Of a stretch of 64,000 nucleotides of DNA, positions 9,661-27,223 are shown piece by piece. The stretch is from Cylindrospermum sp. NIES-4074 (GTDB taxonomy: Bacteria; Cyanobacteriota; Cyanobacteriia; Cyanobacteriales; Nostocaceae): positions 3,001,484-3,065,483 of the forward strand of contig AP018269.1 of NCBI GenBank assembly GCA_003994795.1. Direction: 5' to 3'. The notes beneath the pieces are model-generated. The model saw only the letters and a program-made list of their open reading frames with translations, was not told the DNA's origin and did no database searches. Position 1 is the first letter of the stretch, and the number at the start of each line of letters is the position of its first letter. A program made the position numbers and the translations under genes.

Positions 9661-10024
9661 TATTTCATCCTCACACTACACCCTATACTCAGCCCTAACG
9701 ACTAGAAGTTACGCGCCAGTTGCTAACCTTTTCCTGAAAGAGAAAGAGTACAAGTCGAGTATTGCCGACGCTACTTGCTTGGCTACACAAACAAAGTCTG
9801 CTTGGTATTGTTGCCTCATCGTATCAACTGCAACTTCGCGATCGCCTCTTGACAGCAAATGAAACAATTTTTTTAACCTAAAATATTTAAGAATTATTGT
9901 AGGCTGTGAAGGTATGAAATAGTTTTGTAATGTGTTCACTGGTGGTTACAAAGACTGGGTAGAAATCAATGTTTCTCAATCAGCGGCTTGTAGCTAGCAC
10001 TATTTTGGAAACTTTTAATTGCTT
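9661..10024. other. Intergenic region with fragments of dispersed repeats
   Basis: The gap between dprA and the divergent haemagglutinin-CHAT gene contains GCGCCAGTTGCTA at 9716-9728 and a GCTTGGCTACACAAACAAAG copy ending at 9796. Both are shared with repeat clusters near 46,620-46,670 and 47,696. No convincing gene is present. Confidence 0.5.
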
Positions 10025-13000
10025 ATGACTTTTGTAGCTAAGAAGATTAATAATTTATTGTTATTGCTCGTAGTTAGTGCGATCGCTCAAATTCTAGCAG
10101 GAATCGCCCCAACCCAAGCCCAGTCAATCACCCCAGCCGCAGACGGGACAAACACACTAGTCACCCCCAACGGCAACCAACTCAACATCAACGGCGGTTC
10201 AGTATCACAAGATGGCGCAAACCTCTACCACAGCTTCCAAAAATTTAATTTAAACGCCGACCAAATCGCCAACTTCCAATCTAACCCCAATATCCAGAAT
10301 ATATTGGGGCGGGTTGTTGGTGGTGACGCCTCATTGATAAACGGTTTAATTCAAGTCACAGGGGGGAATTCCAACTTATTTTTAGTTAACCCCGCAGGCA
10401 TCATATTTGGCCCCAACTCCCAATTAAACGTACCTGCATCCTTCACCGCGACCACAGCCAACAGCATTGGGTTTGGTAATAATTTGTGGTTTAATGCGAT
10501 CGGCACAAACAATTACGCTGCCTTAGTCGGAGAACCGAGTAACTTCGTCTTTAACCTCAGTCAACCAGGAAGCATCATCAATGCCGGTTCTCTGCAAGTA
10601 GCAACCGGACAAAACCTCACCTTACTCGGTGGGAATGTCATCAACACAGGAACCCTAACAGCACCACAGGGAAATATCACCATTGCCGCCGTACCAGGGT
10701 CAAGTTTAGTACGGATATCGCAACCAGGAAACCTACTCAGCTTAGAAATTGACCCCAACGCCGCTACTTCAGGAATTAACCCCCTCACCCTACCGCAGTT
10801 GTTAACTGGAAGCAGTGCAAACATCGCCACCGGACTAACAGTTAATAGTACAGGCGAGGTAAAACTAGCCAGTTCCGGCGCGAGTGTAGCCAGCAATGGG
10901 GGAGTAGCCGTTGCTTCCGGTAATTTTGATGTTTCCGGTCAAACAGGCGGCAAAGTCAATATTTTCGGCAACAAAGTAGACGTAATCAACAGTAACATCA
11001 ACGCTTCTGGCATCAATGGCGGCGGTACTGTCTTAATTGGTGGAGATTATCAAGGTAAAGGCACAGTACCAAATGCTCAATTTACCTCAGTAGATAAAGA
11101 CAGTCAAATTAACGCCGATGCCCTAACCAATGGAAATGGCGGTAAAGTCATAATTTGGGCAGATGGGAAAACACAGTTTGATGGCAATATCACAGCCAGA
11201 GGTGGTACTCAAAGCGGCAACGGCGGATTTGTAGAAGTTTCCGGGAAACAGACCCTAAAATATAACGGGTTAGTAGACTTACTAGCAGCTAACGGACAAA
11301 CAGGAAACCTGCTGCTAGACCCAGCCACATTTACCATAGCCAATACTGGTGGAGATATCACCCCAGCCGCAGTAGTTCGTCAATGGAATGCAGCCAAAAC
11401 AACCTATACAGCCGACACCTCCCTCACCGTCACCGATGCTGTAGCTGGGAATAGTGGTTTCAGCCTGACTTTAGATGCACCCACAATTAACTTAGATGCA
11501 CCTATTACTAACGCTGATACAGGTCAGCTTCTTGGTACAGCCAATACGGTGAATGTTGGTGCTAATGGCTTGATTCAAAATGGTGTTGATGTCGCTGCGG
11601 CTGGTGCAAATGTCAATCTAGCGGGAGCAACTTACATTCTCACACAGCAAATAGAGATTAATAAATCTCTGACTGTGACTGGTGCGAATAATACTACTGT
11701 TAGCGGCAACAGTGCCGTCCGTGTCTTCGATATTTCTGGAACTGACACCAACGTCACACTAGACGGTTTAACTATTAGCAAAGGCTATGTTGTTGGCAAT
11801 GGTGGGGGCATTCAAGTGGGAAATGGCAGCACGCTGAACCTCACCAACAGCATTCTTTCTGGTAACTCGGTAACAAACTTCGGTGGCGGTCTCTATAACC
11901 AGGGCACCGTAACAGTCATCAAAAGCACTATTGAAGGCAACTCAGCATCATTAGGCGGCGGCCTCGCTAACCAGGGCACACTTACAGTTAGCGACAGCAC
12001 CATTGAAGGCAACTCAGCAACATTAGGCGGTGGCCTTTTCAATAATGGCGCAGCCACAGTCACTGACAGCAGCCTTGCTGACAATAAGGCAATAAACAAC
12101 GGCGGTGGCATCTACAACAATGGCAGCGTTACAGTCAGCAACAGTACCCTTTCTGGCAACTCGGCAACAGTCGGCGGTGGTATCTACAACAGCTTTGGTA
12201 CTCTCAGTCTTGACCAAAATTCCAGCATTACAGGCGGTGATACAGGGTTAGCTGTAGATGGTAAAACTGGTTCAATTACTCTAGATAACGTCACTTTTTC
12301 TGGTCAAACTGGCGACTATATTACCCTGCTGAATAGCGCAATCGAAGGACAAGAAATCGATGCAACTACTGTCACTTTTGAAAATTCAACTGGTGCAACA
12401 GCAACATTGTCTCAACTGTTTGCCATAGAAGATAAAATTACTCATGGCGTTGATGATTCAACACTTGGTTTAATTCGCGTCAATGCTAATAATATATATG
12501 TGACTCCCAACAGTGGCAGCATTCAAAGAGGTGTAGATATAGCCACCGCAGGAAATACCATCAATGTGGCAACAGGAACTTACACCGAGTCAATAAACAT
12601 TAGTAAATCTGTTAATCTCATCTTTGATGGAGATGGAACTACACTAACAGGTGATTTAACAACAACAGCAGACGATACTATTGGACTCTCTGGAATTTTA
12701 ACAGCCAATGATATCGACTTCAGTGATTCCATAAACTTACTAAACAACGTTACACTCACTGGAAATAATATTATCTTTAACAGCACAGTAGATGGTGATA
12801 GTAATCTCACAGCCGATGCTGTTGATGGCAATCTTACCTTTGCAGGTGCAGTAGGAGATAGTACAGCTTTAGGGGATTTGATAGCTAACAGCACTGGTAC
12901 AACTTTATTTAATACAGTTAAAGCTGCTAGTTTAACTACCAATGCAGGTGGTACAATTCAACTTAATGGCAACATCACCACCACAGGCAATCAAATTTAT

Positions 13001-15223
13001 AATGATGCCGTCACCCTTGCTAATAATCCAATATTAACTGGAAATAGTATTATCTTTAACAGCACAGTAGATGGTGATAGTAATCTCACAGCCGATGCTG
13101 TTGATGGCAATCTTACCTTTGCAGGTGCGGTAGGAGATAGTACAGCTTTAGGAGATTTAAACACTAAAAGTAATGGTTTTACTGAGTTTGAAAGTATAGT
13201 TGATGCTGCTAGTTTAACTATTGATTCTGGTGACACAATTCAATTAAACGGTGATGTTACTGCTAGCAATGGCTCAGTTGACCTGCTAGCAAATCAGAAT
13301 ATTACTACTAGCAATATCTCCACAAATGGAGGAGATATTAGTATTACTAGCCTTCAGGGAAGTATTACAACTGGTGAGTTAAATTCTAATCTTGATGGAG
13401 ATGACAATGCTGGTAATATTTCACTTGATAACAGCGCTGGGGATAATGATATTGTAGTGACATTAATCAATGCTCAAGGTGGAACCAACGGCACAGGTGG
13501 AAATGTAGATATCACCACTAAACGCAATTTCCGAGCGACAAATACCTTCACGGATAGCAATGGGATTAATGCTAGTATTTCCACATCTGGGGGTTCTGGA
13601 GGTGGCGATATCACTATCAATCATGGTGGTGAAAGCTTTGTGGTAGGTGATGCCTCAACTAATGGTACTGCTGGAAGTATTGTTAGTAGCTCTACTAACA
13701 ACATTTCACCTAATCAGTTGTTCACGGAAGATTTCACAGAAGACAATATTCAAATAAATTTTCTCTCAGATATCACTACTAGTGAAATAGTATCGGCGTT
13801 ATCTACAGATACTCTCAATGAAGAAGTAGAGCCAACAGAAACACAAGAAGAGGAGATACAAGAAGATGAAGAAGAAACTACAACCGATGATATAGAAGTA
13901 ACATCTGCCGATAATACTCAATCAGCTACAGCCGAAAGTGAAGCTATTGACGAATCAGAGGAGAGCAACACCCAAGAATTTGCTTCATTTTTGGAACTAC
14001 CCCCAGGTGCAACTTCTGCCAAAACAGAAGATTCACAAACAGTTCTCCGCAATGTTGAGTCAGAGACAGGGGTTAAATCAGCGATTATTTATGTCAATTT
14101 TGCACCAGAAAAATTGACACCCCGTTCCGGGAGCTTGTTGAAGATAGCACAGGATAGCGATATCCTGCGCGTGGGTATCGTCACAGGAAACGTGCTACCT
14201 ATCTACAAGCCAGTATCAGGTGCGACTAGAGCCAAGGTGATGGCTGCATTTCGAGAATTAAAATCAGAAATTACAGACCGTGAAAAAACCAGTAGCAGCA
14301 AATATTTAACCAGTTCCCAGAAGCTTTATCAATGGCTGATAGCACCACAGGAAGCGGAGTTACAGAAACAAGGCATCACTAATTTGATGTTTGTCATGGA
14401 TGAAGGATTGCGATCGCTCCCCATAGCCGCTCTCCATGATGGTAAACAATTTCTGATCGAAAAGTACAGTGTCGCTCTCCTACCGAGTTTCAGCCTCACA
14501 GACACCACCTATAAAGGACTCAAAGATGCTCAAGTTTTAGCAATGGGAGCGGAAAAATTTACCCCAGAACAACAACAAACAGAATTACAAGCTGTACCCC
14601 TAGAAATTCCCACCATCATCAAGAAACTCAAACGGGGTAAATACTTCCTCAACCAAGACTTTACCCTCGCTAATTTGAAAGCACAACGTGCTACCACACC
14701 ATATAAAATCATTCACTTAGCCACCCATGCGGACTTTCCCAGTCAAGCAAATGGAGGTAAAAGTAAATCATATATTCAGTTGTATGACAGCAAATTACAG
14801 CTAAATCAAATAGAGCAATTGGGGTGGAAAAATCCCCCAGTGGAGTTATTGGTGTTAAGTGCTTGTAAATCTGCTGTAGGTGATGAACAGGCAGAATTAG
14901 GTTTTGCGGGGTTAGCTGTTAAGAGTGGTGTCAAGTCAGCAATAGCGAGTTTGTGGTATGTGTCAGATCCGGCAACATTGGGGTTAATGACTGAACTTTA
15001 TAGTAACTTAACTGCTGCTAGGATTAAAGCAGAGGCATTGCAACAAGCGCAATTAGCAATGCTCAAAGGTAAAGTGCGAATCGAAGGAAATCAGTTTATT
15101 GGCTCTCAAGGTAGCATTCAACTATCATCTGAACAGGCTGAATATTTGCAGAACAACATTCAAGGAAAGCTATCTCATCCCTTTTATTGGGCAGCTTTTA
15201 CTATTATTGGTAGCCCTTGGTAA
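10025..15223 (+). CDS. Secreted filamentous-haemagglutinin / beta-helix protein with C-terminal CHAT protease domain
   Basis: A 1,732-residue protein. A signal peptide covers about residues 1-33 (hydrophobic core, APTQAQ end). A two-partner-secretion domain follows to about 290, with the NPAGIIFGPNSQLNV motif. A long parallel-beta-helix part holds GGGLYNQGT-type polymorphic repeats (about 580-725) and a 93-residue in-frame duplication. An acidic linker (about 1270-1320, runs of E, D and T) leads to a C-terminal CHAT domain with H1568 (LATHADF) and C1614 (LSACKSA). CHAT is a caspase-like clan CD peptidase fold. The N-terminus says the protein is exported through an Omp85-type partner, yet no partner gene is adjacent. 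ATG 10025 is preferred to the TTG six bases earlier. It is probably a surface or outer-membrane-associated processing enzyme; the substrate is unknown. Confidence 0.9.
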   Translation: MTFVAKKINNLLLLLVVSAIAQILAGIAPTQAQSITPAADGTNTLVTPNGNQLNINGGSVSQDGANLYHSFQKFNLNADQIANFQSNPNIQNILGRVVGGDASLINGLIQVTGGNSNLFLVNPAGIIFGPNSQLNVPASFTATTANSIGFGNNLWFNAIGTNNYAALVGEPSNFVFNLSQPGSIINAGSLQVATGQNLTLLGGNVINTGTLTAPQGNITIAAVPGSSLVRISQPGNLLSLEIDPNAATSGINPLTLPQLLTGSSANIATGLTVNSTGEVKLASSGASVASNGGVAVASGNFDVSGQTGGKVNIFGNKVDVINSNINASGINGGGTVLIGGDYQGKGTVPNAQFTSVDKDSQINADALTNGNGGKVIIWADGKTQFDGNITARGGTQSGNGGFVEVSGKQTLKYNGLVDLLAANGQTGNLLLDPATFTIANTGGDITPAAVVRQWNAAKTTYTADTSLTVTDAVAGNSGFSLTLDAPTINLDAPITNADTGQLLGTANTVNVGANGLIQNGVDVAAAGANVNLAGATYILTQQIEINKSLTVTGANNTTVSGNSAVRVFDISGTDTNVTLDGLTISKGYVVGNGGGIQVGNGSTLNLTNSILSGNSVTNFGGGLYNQGTVTVIKSTIEGNSASLGGGLANQGTLTVSDSTIEGNSATLGGGLFNNGAATVTDSSLADNKAINNGGGIYNNGSVTVSNSTLSGNSATVGGGIYNSFGTLSLDQNSSITGGDTGLAVDGKTGSITLDNVTFSGQTGDYITLLNSAIEGQEIDATTVTFENSTGATATLSQLFAIEDKITHGVDDSTLGLIRVNANNIYVTPNSGSIQRGVDIATAGNTINVATGTYTESINISKSVNLIFDGDGTTLTGDLTTTADDTIGLSGILTANDIDFSDSINLLNNVTLTGNNIIFNSTVDGDSNLTADAVDGNLTFAGAVGDSTALGDLIANSTGTTLFNTVKAASLTTNAGGTIQLNGNITTTGNQIYNDAVTLANNPILTGNSIIFNSTVDGDSNLTADAVDGNLTFAGAVGDSTALGDLNTKSNGFTEFESIVDAASLTIDSGDTIQLNGDVTASNGSVDLLANQNITTSNISTNGGDISITSLQGSITTGELNSNLDGDDNAGNISLDNSAGDNDIVVTLINAQGGTNGTGGNVDITTKRNFRATNTFTDSNGINASISTSGGSGGGDITINHGGESFVVGDASTNGTAGSIVSSSTNNISPNQLFTEDFTEDNIQINFLSDITTSEIVSALSTDTLNEEVEPTETQEEEIQEDEEETTTDDIEVTSADNTQSATAESEAIDESEESNTQEFASFLELPPGATSAKTEDSQTVLRNVESETGVKSAIIYVNFAPEKLTPRSGSLLKIAQDSDILRVGIVTGNVLPIYKPVSGATRAKVMAAFRELKSEITDREKTSSSKYLTSSQKLYQWLIAPQEAELQKQGITNLMFVMDEGLRSLPIAALHDGKQFLIEKYSVALLPSFSLTDTTYKGLKDAQVLAMGAEKFTPEQQQTELQAVPLEIPTIIKKLKRGKYFLNQDFTLANLKAQRATTPYKIIHLATHADFPSQANGGKSKSYIQLYDSKLQLNQIEQLGWKNPPVELLVLSACKSAVGDEQAELGFAGLAVKSGVKSAIASLWYVSDPATLGLMTELYSNLTAARIKAEALQQAQLAMLKGKVRIEGNQFIGSQGSIQLSSEQAEYLQNNIQGKLSHPFYWAAFTIIGSPW
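12758..13158 (+). repeat. Two near-identical 120-bp segments inside the haemagglutinin gene
   Basis: The segment beginning at 12758 recurs at 13037 with only a few base changes over about 120 bp. The offset is 279 bp, exactly 93 codons, so the reading frame is kept. It encodes repeated rungs of the beta-helix and points to recent expansion by recombination or slippage. Confidence 0.85.
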
Positions 15224-23497: not shown

Positions 23498-23831
23498 TGC
23501 AGAGCAGCTTATATAACAATACGATTCAGTTAAGCCTAAAACTCTTTTTTTTAACGAACCGCAGAGGCGCAGAGGACGCAGAGAGAAGAAAAAAATGCTT
23601 CACTGGACTGTATTAACTTATATAACGGTGCATTAGACGTTCCGCCGTAACTACTACTTGACTAATTGATAAAGTTTAGGTAATGTTGGGATTACATTCA
23701 TTCTCAGATAAAAGATTACTGATCTTTGCGCGATAAGAGAAGAAAGAAAAATACCAGAAGTGTAAAGATCACAAAAGTAACAGCATAAAGGGTTAATGAC
23801 TCTATAGAGCCGAACGCGCAACCCGAAAGCC

Positions 23832-23903
23832 GACATAAGAGTTCCTGACGCCGACAACGACGCAGCTACGATACGCCAAACGGCAAAAATAAGGAATACT
23901 GAT
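23832..23903 (-). other. Candidate variable region of a diversity-generating retroelement
   Basis: The last 40 codons of the FGE domain keep the fixed scaffold LRGGSW, CR, A, R and GFRV. The positions that are usually AAY (asparagine) codons in templates of this type read ATC, AGT, ATT, TAT, TTT, TAT, AGC, TGC, GTC, GTT, GTC, GGC, GTC, TCT, TAT and GTC. Every one ends in C or T, as expected if adenines of AAC/AAT template codons were replaced at the first two positions. No reverse transcriptase or template repeat was seen in this window, so these would have to lie elsewhere. Confidence 0.65.
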
Positions 23904-25390
23904 CCAAGAACCACCGCGCAGGATTCGATAATTATCCCCACTATTCCAAGCACTACCGTCTGTTGGCGAATTTATATAATTTTCGTGCCACCCATCTTCG
24001 CACCATTCCCATACATTACCATGCATATCGTATAGACCGAAAGCATTTGGCCGGAAAATTCCTACATTTGTTGTTTCTTCACGATACTTACCTTTGGGGC
24101 TGAAATTGTATGTTTGATTTCCATTGTAATTAGCTAAATATGTGGTGATTGTGTCACCAAAATAAAAAGGGGTAGTAGTTCCGGCTCTACAAGCATATTC
24201 CCATTCAGCCTCGCTGGGCAAGCGATATAATTTGCCTGTATGCTTTTTTAATCTAGAACAAAATTCCTGCGCGTCATTCCATGATACTTGCTCAACTGGT
24301 CGGTTAGTACCTTTAAAGTGAGATGGGTTGGGGTTTAAATAAATTTTTACTTTTGGTAAAGCTGCTACCCTTTCCCATTGTGCTTGAGTAACAGGATATT
24401 TCCCCATAAAAAAGGGTTTAATGGCAACTTTGTGCTGGGGTTTTTCATTATCATATGATGAACCCATCAAAAAATTTCCTCCAGTCATAGCTACCATTTC
24501 TAAGGTAACATCTTTACCAAAAACAGAGTTTTTACCTAAATTTTCGCTCAAATATTGTGCTTGGCATTTTTCTATTTTTACTTCTAGACCTTCAGCATTT
24601 ACAGTCACTACCTCAAACTGAAAAACCTGTAATTTCTTTTTCTGAGTAGATGGGGTTTCAGACTGTATAGACCTACCTCCAACAGGTGATTTAACAGGCT
24701 CAGGTTGTAAAACTGGAGAAGAACTTCCTTGTCGCTGAGAAATTCTGTAAAATGCTTCAATCGCTTGCAAATCTGAACCCCTAGCAGCTACATTCACCCG
24801 CATCCATAGCTGTTTGGCTAATTCCCAATTTCCTTGTACTTCTGCTTGAAAAGCATCAAGTTTTAGCGTTGCAATATCATTTAAAGTGGCGTATTGCGGT
24901 AATAAAATTAGGTGTAGCTTAGTCGCAGGTTCCGCAACAGCGTAAGGATTCTGTGGAATTTTTCCATAATCTTGATTAATAGCAGGAACACGCCGTTTTA
25001 AATATTCCTGCAACCTTTCCACCGTCGCACAGTTCCCTTCACCATTTATTCTTAACCCTTCTAACAAAGCGTGGGTAAATGAACCATGCTGTAATTGCTC
25101 AATTTCCCAAGACTTTTGCTGAGAACTGCAAGAATAAAAGGTAATCACTCCTTGATGCTCTCCGCCAATACCTAAGCCGCTTCTACTTCTTTCATTGCGA
25201 CAGGCATCCAAGAACAATACCACATTATCAGCACCGCAACGACGCAATCTTTGGGTGACAAAATCCACAGAGATAGCGGTATGCTCTGGATCTCCGGGGT
25301 CACTATCCGATAGTATTACAGCAATTTGAGATCAAACACGCCACAAAGATCGTAAACTTTAAAAATGTAAAAAAAGAAGATTATTGAGAA

Positions 25391-26361
25391 ATGGCAGCAT
25401 ATTCCATTGACTTGCGAAAGAAGATATTAAGTGCGTGGCAAAACCAAGAAGGTACGCAGAGAGAGTTAGCGGAAAGATTTAAAGTTAGTTTATCATTTAT
25501 CCGTGACTTTTTGCGTCGGTATCGAGAGACGGGGGAGATAACTGCCAGATCCCAAGGAGGAGATCGGCGCTCAAAGCTTAAAGATAAAGAGCAAGAATTA
25601 TTAAAGATAATGGTGACAGAGCAAAATGATCTATATTTGCGAGAAATTCAAGCAGCAATCAAAGAGCGCGCATGTATAGAAGTAAGTATATCAAGTTTGT
25701 CCCGTACTCTCAACCGCTTAAAATTAAATCGTAAAAAAAAACTTTAGTAGCGACTGAGCAAGCGACAGAACGAGTACAAGAATTGCGCCATGAATTTCGG
25801 CGTTGGTTAGATACTATAGATGTTAGAAACCTGGTATTCATCGATGAAACAGGTGTAAATCTAGCTATGACAAGACACTATGGTAGGTGTGAAGGTGGAG
25901 TCAGAGTCTATGATAATCGCCCAGGAAATAAAGGTAAAAACATGACTGTAATTGCAGCTATGAGCGATGAAGGCTTAATTGCCACTATGACTTTCCCCGG
26001 TAGTTTGAATACGGCTAGTTTTTTAGTTTTTATCGAGCAAATATTACTACCTCAGTTGTGGCGGGGAGCAATTGTAGTGATGGATAATTTACCTGTACAT
26101 TATGCTAATACGGCAAAAGCAATAATAGAATCTGTTGGCGCTAAAATTAAGTTTTTGCCTCCATACTCGCCTGATTTATCACCAATCGAATTATGTTGGT
26201 CAAAGTTAAAAGAAATTCTTCGTTCTGCTAAAACTCGCACATTTGATACTCTTAATGAAGCAATCACTATGGCTGTTAATACTATTACTGATGAAAATGC
26301 GCTAAATTGGTTTCATCATTGTGGTCTATTTTTTGACCCTATTAGAAAGCTATTCCTGTAG
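25391..26361 (+). CDS. IS630-family transposase made by a -1 frameshift
   Basis: The first frame (25391-25747) encodes a helix-turn-helix N-terminus (MAAYSIDLRKKILSAW, then TQRELAERFKVSLSFIRDFL). The second frame, up to 26361, encodes the DDE catalytic part: FIDETGVN, VVMDNLPVH, and PPYSPDLSPIELCWSKLKE with the final acidic residue. A -1 shift at nine consecutive As (25733-25741) joins them as KKKTLVATEQATERV, giving an intact protein of about 323 residues. Programmed frameshifting or slippage at A-runs is known for IS630 elements. No other damage is visible, so the element may be active. Confidence 0.88.
25733..25741 (+). promoter_or_regulatory. A9 slippery site for -1 frameshifting
   Basis: Nine As directly before the first-frame stop (CTT TAG). 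Slipping back one base opens the frame that carries the DDE domain. Confidence 0.75.
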
Positions 26362-26806
26362 TGGGTTTGATCGCAAACTGCTGTAAGTAATCACGGTCAG
26401 CATGACGTTGACCATGACCAGCAAAGAAAAACCACAGATTATCCCCTGGTTGTAACAGAGGTTGTTCAAATTGCGCTCTTAAAAATCGCCGCAGGTGTCC
26501 AAAGGTTGGCTGTGTGGGTATTGGTGGATTAGTATCGATGGGTGGAGAGTCTTCTGTGAACAAGAAAACTTCATCAAACCTCCCTTCCAGCTTAAACCAA
26601 TCACGCATTCCCTCAGCATCGCCCTTGGCATATTCTAGCGCCTGGAAGTTGCTATATTTATTTATGCCGATGCTAATTGCCCAATTAACCATTTCTCCAG
26701 CCTAAATCCGATTTTTCCCCTTTTGCGGCGAAAATAGACGTATTACTTTTATCATAGTAATGTCTTCTGTTGTCAATAGTAATACGCAGTTTCAGGAATA
26801 AATCTG

Positions 26807-27223
26807 ATGTCTGAAGAAATTTTTACCCCAAACACAATCTGGATTATTACAGAAGAAGTGGCTGAAACCACAACAACTACTAGTGAAACATCAACTGTGA
26901 GAGGTGCTAGAGACAGTCGTGATATGGGAGGAATAATCGGACGCAAAAGCGCTGAGGAAATAGTGCTGACTACAGAAAAAGGTAAAGTAGTAATTACCAA
27001 GCGCAAGCCTGTAGAGGTAACAAAACTCAAGGAGCAAATGAAGGGATTTCTGCAAGCAATGCGGGAAATGCTGGATGAAGCTGACGAACCTGATTCTAAA
27101 ATTCAGCTTGATGAAGTGGAAGTATCAGTTGAAATTAATGGGGAAGGACAAGTTAGCTTACTAGGAATTGGTGGGAAAGCAGGCGGTAAAGGAAGTATGA
27201 CTTTTAAATTTAAGCGCAAATAA
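26807..27223 (+). CDS. Small Pepco-like protein beside the metacaspase gene
   Basis: A 138-residue soluble protein. It begins with a WIITEEV strand and a threonine-rich, poorly structured stretch. The second half (about 70-138) reads VEVTKLKEQMKGFLQAM, then DEVEVSVEINGEGQVSLLGI and GGKAGGKGSMTFKFKR. This pattern resembles the Pepco domain, found beside caspase- and trypsin-like proteases in conflict systems of multicellular bacteria; the assignment is from memory. It is divergent from the metacaspase-FGE gene with a 114-bp gap, consistent with a shared control region. It may hold the protease in check or deliver a signal, which is inferred. Confidence 0.6.
   Translation: MSEEIFTPNTIWIITEEVAETTTTTSETSTVRGARDSRDMGGIIGRKSAEEIVLTTEKGKVVITKRKPVEVTKLKEQMKGFLQAMREMLDEADEPDSKIQLDEVEVSVEINGEGQVSLLGIGGKAGGKGSMTFKFKRK

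What the first reader, a model, noticed from the sequence alone, without database searches (positions are those of the whole stretch)
23832..23903. Diversity-generating-retroelement-like variable region at the end of a metacaspase-FGE protein
Seen: about 16 codons between the fixed words LRGGSW and GFRV all end in C or T and read I, S, I, Y, F, Y, S, C, V, V, V, G, V, S, Y, V, where relatives usually have asparagine. That is what adenine-directed mutagenesis of AAC/AAT template codons would give. Known: FGE/C-type-lectin folds are classic targets of diversity-generating retroelements, including in cyanobacteria. Inference: this is a remote target, since no reverse transcriptase or template repeat was found in the window.
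Basis: partly seen in the sequence, partly recalled or inferred. Interest (0 to 1): 0.78.

Follow-up and report, generated by a model that had tools for sequence, protein, structure and literature searches.

The report
Orphaned hypervariable tip of sensor gene
The end of this cyanobacterial gene bears the marks of a known natural mutation machine that rewrites binding sites, but the machine was not found in this genome, so the gene looks like a leftover target rather than one still being diversified.

Summary
Window 23832-23903 (- strand) is a 24-codon stretch between LRGGSW and GFRV, at the C-terminus of an FGE/C-type-lectin domain fused to a caspase-like domain. Relatives in the same family carry diversity-generating retroelements (DGRs) whose template repeats have the same frame (e.g. 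RGGSWNNNPENCRSAYRNNNDAGNRNNNNGFRV). A syntenic orthologue in a second species of the genus is 84% identical outside the stretch and 6 of 24 identical inside; the stretch is the least conserved part of the gene. A second target family, compared across the three genus genomes held, has codon positions 1 and 2 scrambled and position 3 largely kept.

The inference "remote target" is not borne out: no DGR reverse transcriptase and no usable template were found in the 7.70-Mb assembly, and no DGR RT in the other two genus genomes. A 190-bp remnant (last template codons plus the conserved region after the template) sits on a 261-kb contig. The window gene is split by an IS630 element.

Best reading: an orphaned, probably decaying DGR variable region. 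Caution: the adenine-bias test against borrowed templates is not decisive alone, because a conserved non-variable paralogue also scores. Moderate interest; the kind is known.

The parts
23832..23903 (-). Variable region (VR), 24 codons
   Evidence: least conserved 26-column stretch of the gene against the syntenic orthologue; frame of DGR templates in relatives
23904..23921 (-). Constant word LRGGSW before the VR; the nucleotide alignment to the orthologue ends at 23904
23820..23831 (-). Constant word GFRV after the VR
23802..25268 (-). C-terminal part of the gene: second part of a caspase domain (PF00656) and FGE-sulfatase domain (PF03781, residues 257-485)
25319..26383 (+). IS630-type insertion (HTH ORF 25391-25747, DDE_3 ORF 25783-26361) inside the caspase domain; ends approximate; 22-bp terminal inverted repeats with 2 mismatches, read by eye
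   Evidence: Alignment break against the intact orthologue at 25318/26384 and printed ends, ORF domains; the repeat finder listed no pair there
26342..26692 (-). N-terminal part of the same caspase domain (PF00656), cut off by the insertion; the last residues of this ORF read into the IS
   Evidence: intact 613-aa orthologue in G002
26807..27223 (+). Pepco-domain gene (PF24393), divergent neighbour, present at the same place in G002

Best explanation
The stretch is an orphaned variable region of a diversity-generating retroelement. In an ancestor, a DGR reverse transcriptase copied a template repeat with random errors at adenines and the copy replaced the end of this caspase-FGE gene, changing the binding face of its lectin-like domain (by homology, a ligand or antigen sensor coupled to a protease). 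The RT and the template were later lost from this lineage, leaving frozen variants, a template 3' fragment on a 261-kb contig, and, at this locus, a target gene since broken by an IS630 element. Shown: domain make-up, orthologue hypervariability, no RT and no full template found in the assembly, the remnant, the insertion. Inferred: the mechanism, the sensor role, and the order of events.
For: 1) DGRs of relatives: 8 of 12 fetched regions hold an RT frame of 352-363 codons (stop to stop) next to a template of the same frame and one or two FGE targets. In nine equal-length same-locus pairs (one pair, L082, dropped for unequal length) 126 of 257 template adenines and 0 of 637 other bases are changed. 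2) Syntenic orthologue in G002: inside the VR 6/24 residues identical, outside 379/453; the VR holds the lowest of 452 sliding windows; differences shift to codon positions 1-2 (25 of 36 inside, 83 of 183 outside, p 0.007). 3) Second target family: inside 10/24 (G000-G002), 10/24 (G000-G001), 12/24 (G002-G001) residues identical, nucleotide differences at codon positions 1/2/3 of 8/9/3, 12/5/2, 11/10/4; outside 598/646, 365/500, 379/504 with 30/15/72, 105/72/133, 101/70/133 (position-shift p 1e-4, 3e-3, 5e-3). 4) Negative control: a third FGE family in the same three genomes keeps 23/24, 23/24, 24/24 in this stretch, with differences 0/1/7, 0/1/3, 0/0/4. 5) RT search: a DGR-RT query matches at E<=1e-20 in 69 of 217 family genomes but 0 of 3 of this genus; at E<=10 the genus gives only hits of 23-37% identity. 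6) Remnant at G000:C3:57439-57628, 89% over 192 alignment columns to the template end and downstream region of G122's DGR (L111).
Against: The window VR has no cognate template; against the best borrowed one 12 of 70 non-adenine sites also differ, where same-locus pairs have 0. A conserved, non-variable paralogue shows a weaker but significant adenine bias too (odds 2.9-4.4 vs 9.2). A VR-like stretch with the same scores as the window (A 19/29, other 12/70) is found in two Anabaena species, and with identical residues in a Trichormus genome, so a frozen, conserved sequence can give the same score. Third positions also differ between the window VR and its orthologue (11 of 24). The remnant matches no VR locus of this genome at E<=1e-3. 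The other two genus genomes hold RVT_1-type genes that the DGR-RT query hits at down to E 1.6e-14 (23-37% identity); I did not type these beyond their low identity and length. In pairs with G001 the second family is also less conserved outside the VR. No population data exist here.
Confidence: 0.8

Rival explanations
1. Live target served in trans by an RT on a plasmid or other mobile element that this isolate or assembly lacks; diversification still happens in the population when the element is present.
For: DGR RTs 74-75% identical to the query lie on plasmids of Anabaena sp. 90, Fischerella sp. NIES-4106 and Nostoc sp. UHCC 0926. The template remnant lies outside the main contig, on a 261-kb contig. 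Target families are hypervariable in a genus with no DGR RT found.
Against: No DGR RT in three of three genomes, 99-100% complete. This target is split by an IS and carries CRLA where 105 of 122 distinct related sequences have CRSA. Its 12 non-adenine differences speak against recent rewriting from the known templates.
Confidence: 0.1
2. The variants were made elsewhere and brought in by horizontal transfer or gene conversion among FGE paralogues.
For: The window VR and its G002 orthologue fit different templates best: L075 for the window, L083 for G002 by score, L099 for G002 by eye. So a whole block seems to have been replaced; recombination would do this too.
Against: No other copy of the window block was found in the three genomes (best others 72-81% identity); G002's block was not searched for. 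In the second family third positions mostly agree among species while positions 1-2 differ, which recombination alone does not predict.
Confidence: 0.06
3. Ordinary fast evolution of a surface loop, no retroelement ever involved.
For: A non-variable paralogue also differs from DGR templates mainly at adenines; pyrimidine endings alone have P 0.006.
Against: Hypervariability confined to the VR, reversed codon-position bias, template-like frame, and DGRs with this frame in the family.
Confidence: 0.04

Closest known systems
[quoted passage not shown] abstract, section 6 and passages seen)
   Same: C-terminal CLec domain with the VR near the 3' end, orthocaspase-like N-terminal domains, dispersed paralogues, transposases nearby
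   Different: Their remote targets are assigned to a DGR of the same genome; here no RT or full template was found. They report one PCC 7120 paralogue (all3226) with remnant homology and no proximal RT, and suggest removal of the machinery after an optimal variant is selected; PCC 7120 itself keeps two DGRs.
DGR-diversified putative antigen sensors of conflict systems (PMC10907252, PMC7159879; passages seen)
   Same: FGE-type domain as proposed sensor, caspase-like effectors
   Different: No MoxR or vWA family among the 14 window proteins scanned by Pfam; the target here is broken by an IS. That Pepco is an adaptor of such systems is recalled; the word does not occur in PMC7159879.
TvpA of Treponema denticola (PDB 2y3c)
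   Same: Solved variable protein; its LRGGSW...GFR stretch aligns with the window VR (E 1e-22 for the 265-residue query)
   Different: From another phylum; not a caspase fusion in that chain. The best PDB hit by score is PvdO (5hha), not a DGR protein.
Nostoc punctiforme DGR with adenine mutation seen on resequencing (PMC12691664; passages seen)
   Same: Filamentous Nostocaceae with DGR targets
   Different: RT and template present and expressed there

Membership tests
Diversity-generating retroelement (complete, active) | DGR-type reverse transcriptase in the genome | tested here: not met
   One RVT_1 match, a group II intron RT with RVT_N and GIIM; DGR-RT query finds only that gene, E 0.006
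Diversity-generating retroelement (complete, active) | Template repeat matching the VR except at adenines | tested here: not met
   VR as query: itself, two paralogues and nine hits at E 0.5-6. A relative's template as query: three VRs, the 3' remnant, and hits at E 0.019 or worse
Diversity-generating retroelement (complete, active) | Ongoing variation at the VR in the population | not testable with these tools
   One genome per species held
Diversity-generating retroelement (complete, active) | Accessory protein Avd | not tested
   No search made for it
DGR variable protein (target, by descent) | CLec/FGE domain with the VR at its C-terminus | tested here: met
   PF03781 at residues 257-485, VR at residues 456-479 of 488; TvpA match
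DGR variable protein (target, by descent) | Same frame and length as family templates | tested here: met
   Same length as 21 of 29 distinct templates
DGR variable protein (target, by descent) | Differences from the cognate template only at adenines | tested here: inconclusive
   No cognate template found; best borrowed template 19/29 A, 12/70 other
DGR variable protein (target, by descent) | Orthologues differ at the VR | tested here: met
   6/24 inside, 379/453 outside
DGR variable protein (target, by descent) | Hairpin/cruciform downstream of the VR | tested here: inconclusive
   Hairpins of 6-7 bp scattered among VRs, templates and controls without pattern

The most novel reading that the evidence does not exclude
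In this genus the variable regions stay in the genome while the mutator comes and goes on mobile replicons: sensors are rewritten during episodes when an RT-bearing plasmid is present and are frozen between episodes, so the lineage has on/off, population-shared hypermutation.
Probability: 0.12. Interest if true: 0.75.

Novelty: new member of a known kind. Interest (0 to 1): 0.42.

Why it matters
It shows what a programmed-hypermutation system leaves behind: target genes keep their last variants after RT and template are gone. Such orphan variable regions may be common in the family (42 of 72 genomes with a VR-like DNA match show no DGR RT, an upper bound). They record past rewriting and allow one to ask whether a frozen variant is kept by selection or decays.

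Tried and rejected
Downstream hairpin as a homing signal: 6-7 bp hairpins occur after some VRs, some templates and two of three control genes, with no consistent position; rejected. Rfam for the conserved region after the template: no match at gathering score in three loci. Plasmid collection for the VR DNA: no match. Viral contigs for a close RT: two hits at 47% identity, so no phage source is suggested. RT fragment on the remnant's contig: no hit at E<=10. Dating the orphaning by non-adenine changes: not possible without the cognate template. The adenine-bias p-value as stand-alone proof: given up after the control paralogue also scored.

Limits of counts: templates were called by Asn content (at least 9); those of L168 and L186 come from the named-genome scan and I did not check for an RT beside them. 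8 of 29 templates were dropped for unequal length. VRs without an equal-length template were not scored; the third VR of this genome (L003) is one. The first motif search missed one G002 variable region (RGSSW instead of RGGSW), found with a looser motif. In one search at most 4 candidates per genome were scored. In the family RT search at most 9 were scored, so absence is firm for G000 (3 of 3), G001 (6 of 6) and G002 (12 of 12), less so for RT-rich genomes. Of the 69 RT-positive genomes I read 52 as holding more than half of a >=60% identical RT (some with an in-frame stop), 8 as holding shorter fragments and 9 as holding only distant (~30%) RTs, from the printed list.

Full report
What is there. 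Window 23802-25268 (-) encodes 488 residues with the second part of a caspase domain (PF00656) and an FGE-sulfatase domain (PF03781, residues 257-485); 26342-26692 (-) holds the first part of the caspase domain. Between them lies an IS630-type element (HTH and DDE_3 ORFs). Against G002, a second species of the genus, the nucleotide alignment breaks at 25318 and resumes at 26384 while the G002 positions are contiguous, so this is a clean insertion of about 1.06 kb. G002 has an intact 613-residue caspase-FGE gene in the same place, between relatives of the same UPF0093/CopD-like gene and the same Pepco gene.

The observation. The 24 codons between LRGGSW and GFRV lie exactly at 23832-23903 and read as stated. 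All 16 named codons end in C or T; the chance of that for those residues at the window's codon usage is 0.006. One correction: against the nearest known template (L075), 11 of the 16 face Asn, two are the template's own Tyr and Gly, and one Val faces Ala.

Relatives have the machinery. A search of 192 genomes of the family found VR-like DNA in 72. Of twelve regions fetched, eight hold an RT frame of 352-363 codons with (I/V)GNL(T/S)SQ and RYVDD motifs, directly followed by a template encoding RGGSW(N/I)NNP..., and one or two FGE targets. In nine equal-length same-locus pairs (one further pair dropped for unequal length) the targets differ from the template at 126 of 257 adenines and at 0 of 637 other bases. 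PMC3521204 (passages seen) names adenine exchanges without other mutations as a hallmark of continuing diversification.

The window VR against borrowed templates. For 21 of 21 equal-length templates adenine sites are changed more often than others (p 6e-7 to 1.5e-3); with the best template 19 of 29 and 12 of 70. I do not lean on this, because a paralogous FGE gene whose same stretch is conserved across the genus scores p 0.001 to 0.014.

Orthologue tests. Window against G002: 6/24 identical residues inside and 379/453 outside (p 1.6e-9); the VR is the lowest of 452 windows; the share of differences at positions 1-2 rises from 83 of 183 outside to 25 of 36 inside (p 0.007). Third positions also differ (11 of 24), and the two VRs fit different templates best, so the block seems to have been rewritten from different templates in the two lineages. 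No close orthologue of this gene was found in G001 (best 58%). A second target family (G000 C1:3885012, G002 C2:2380901, G001 C75) is cleaner: 10/24, 10/24 and 12/24 identical inside, with nucleotide differences 8/9/3, 12/5/2 and 11/10/4 at codon positions 1/2/3. Outside, G000-G002 have 598/646 and 30/15/72; the pairs with G001 have 365/500 and 379/504 with 105/72/133 and 101/70/133, so the G001 gene is more distant throughout, on a contig that ends nearby. The control family keeps 23/24, 23/24 and 24/24, with differences mainly at third positions.

The machinery was not found here. In the 7,704,857-base, 5-contig, 100% complete genome, Pfam RVT_1 has one match, a group II intron RT by its RVT_N and GIIM domains. 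A DGR-RT query finds only that gene, at E 0.006. The same query has matches at E<=1e-20 in 69 of 217 family genomes (9 of them only distant RTs), 0 of 3 in this genus; at E<=10 the genus gives hits of 23-37% identity, the best E 1.6e-14 in G001. The VR as query finds itself, two paralogues and nine hits at E 0.5 or worse. A relative's template as query adds C3:57439-57559 and weak hits at E 0.019 or worse. That stretch, extended to 57628, is 89% identical over 192 columns to the template end and downstream region of G122's DGR (L111) and matches the same region in many other DGR loci fetched. It starts within the last few codons of the template, and no RT was found on its contig. It is not found in G001; G002 gives only hits of 19-28 bases at E 0.1 or worse.

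Orphans elsewhere. G136, with no RVT_1 match (60 contigs), has a VR that equals the template of its congener G029 at all 68 non-adenine sites and differs at 18 of 31 adenines. G059 differs from the L075 template at 11/29 and 2/70, with no DGR RT listed. Of 72 genomes with a VR-like DNA match, 28 have a largely whole DGR RT, 2 have fragments and 42 have none; this is an upper bound on orphans, since not every match is a true VR and candidate lists were capped. VR-like matches and RTs do go together (28 of 72 against 20 of 120 without a match, p 6e-4). One VR-like sequence is identical in residues in Anabaena catenula, A. lutea and Trichormus sp. NMC-1, a frozen and apparently conserved variant.

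How it most likely works. By homology the FGE/C-type-lectin domain is the binding module and the caspase domain the effector; PMC10907252 and PMC7159879 (passages seen) place such domains in conflict systems. The VR aligns with the same stretch of TvpA, a solved DGR target. The VR was written by a DGR that this lineage has lost; this copy is further along, with an IS in the caspase domain and CRLA where 105 of 122 distinct sequences have CRSA. Loss of the machinery after a favourable variant was suggested in PMC7517822 (section 6 read).

Verdict. The kind is known; hypervariable targets left behind in a genus without a DGR RT are the useful part. I ran five paper searches and saw no paper listed on variable regions in RT-less genera; that is not proof of absence in print.

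Noticed in passing
G000:C3:57439-57628 (L132 1501-1690; L140): Remnant of a DGR: last template codons and the conserved region downstream of the template, abutting a repeat-protein gene; RT and most of the template not found.
   Followed up: yes
Region after the template in many DGR loci (e.g. L111 1853-2044, L103, L083): Conserved region of about 160-250 bp after the template, 67-89% identical to the remnant, no Rfam match in the three loci tried; perhaps part of the template RNA used for priming.
   Followed up: partly
L032 (G136): VR equal to a congener's template at 68 of 68 non-adenine sites in a genome without any RVT_1 match: the cleanest orphan VR seen.
   Followed up: partly
L153, L154, L155: Identical VR-like residues (SYRPVYCRSAYRVSYVATCKDFNH) in three named genomes: a frozen, apparently conserved variant.
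   Followed up: no
window 10019-15223 (+): 1734-residue protein with TPS secretion domain and CHAT domain, near a sigma-70 region 4 protein and a DUF1822 gene.
   Followed up: no
L158, L160-L162, L205: Dolichospermum/Anabaena FGE genes matching the window protein at 63-64% over about residues 246-487; not tested for VR state as a group.
   Followed up: no
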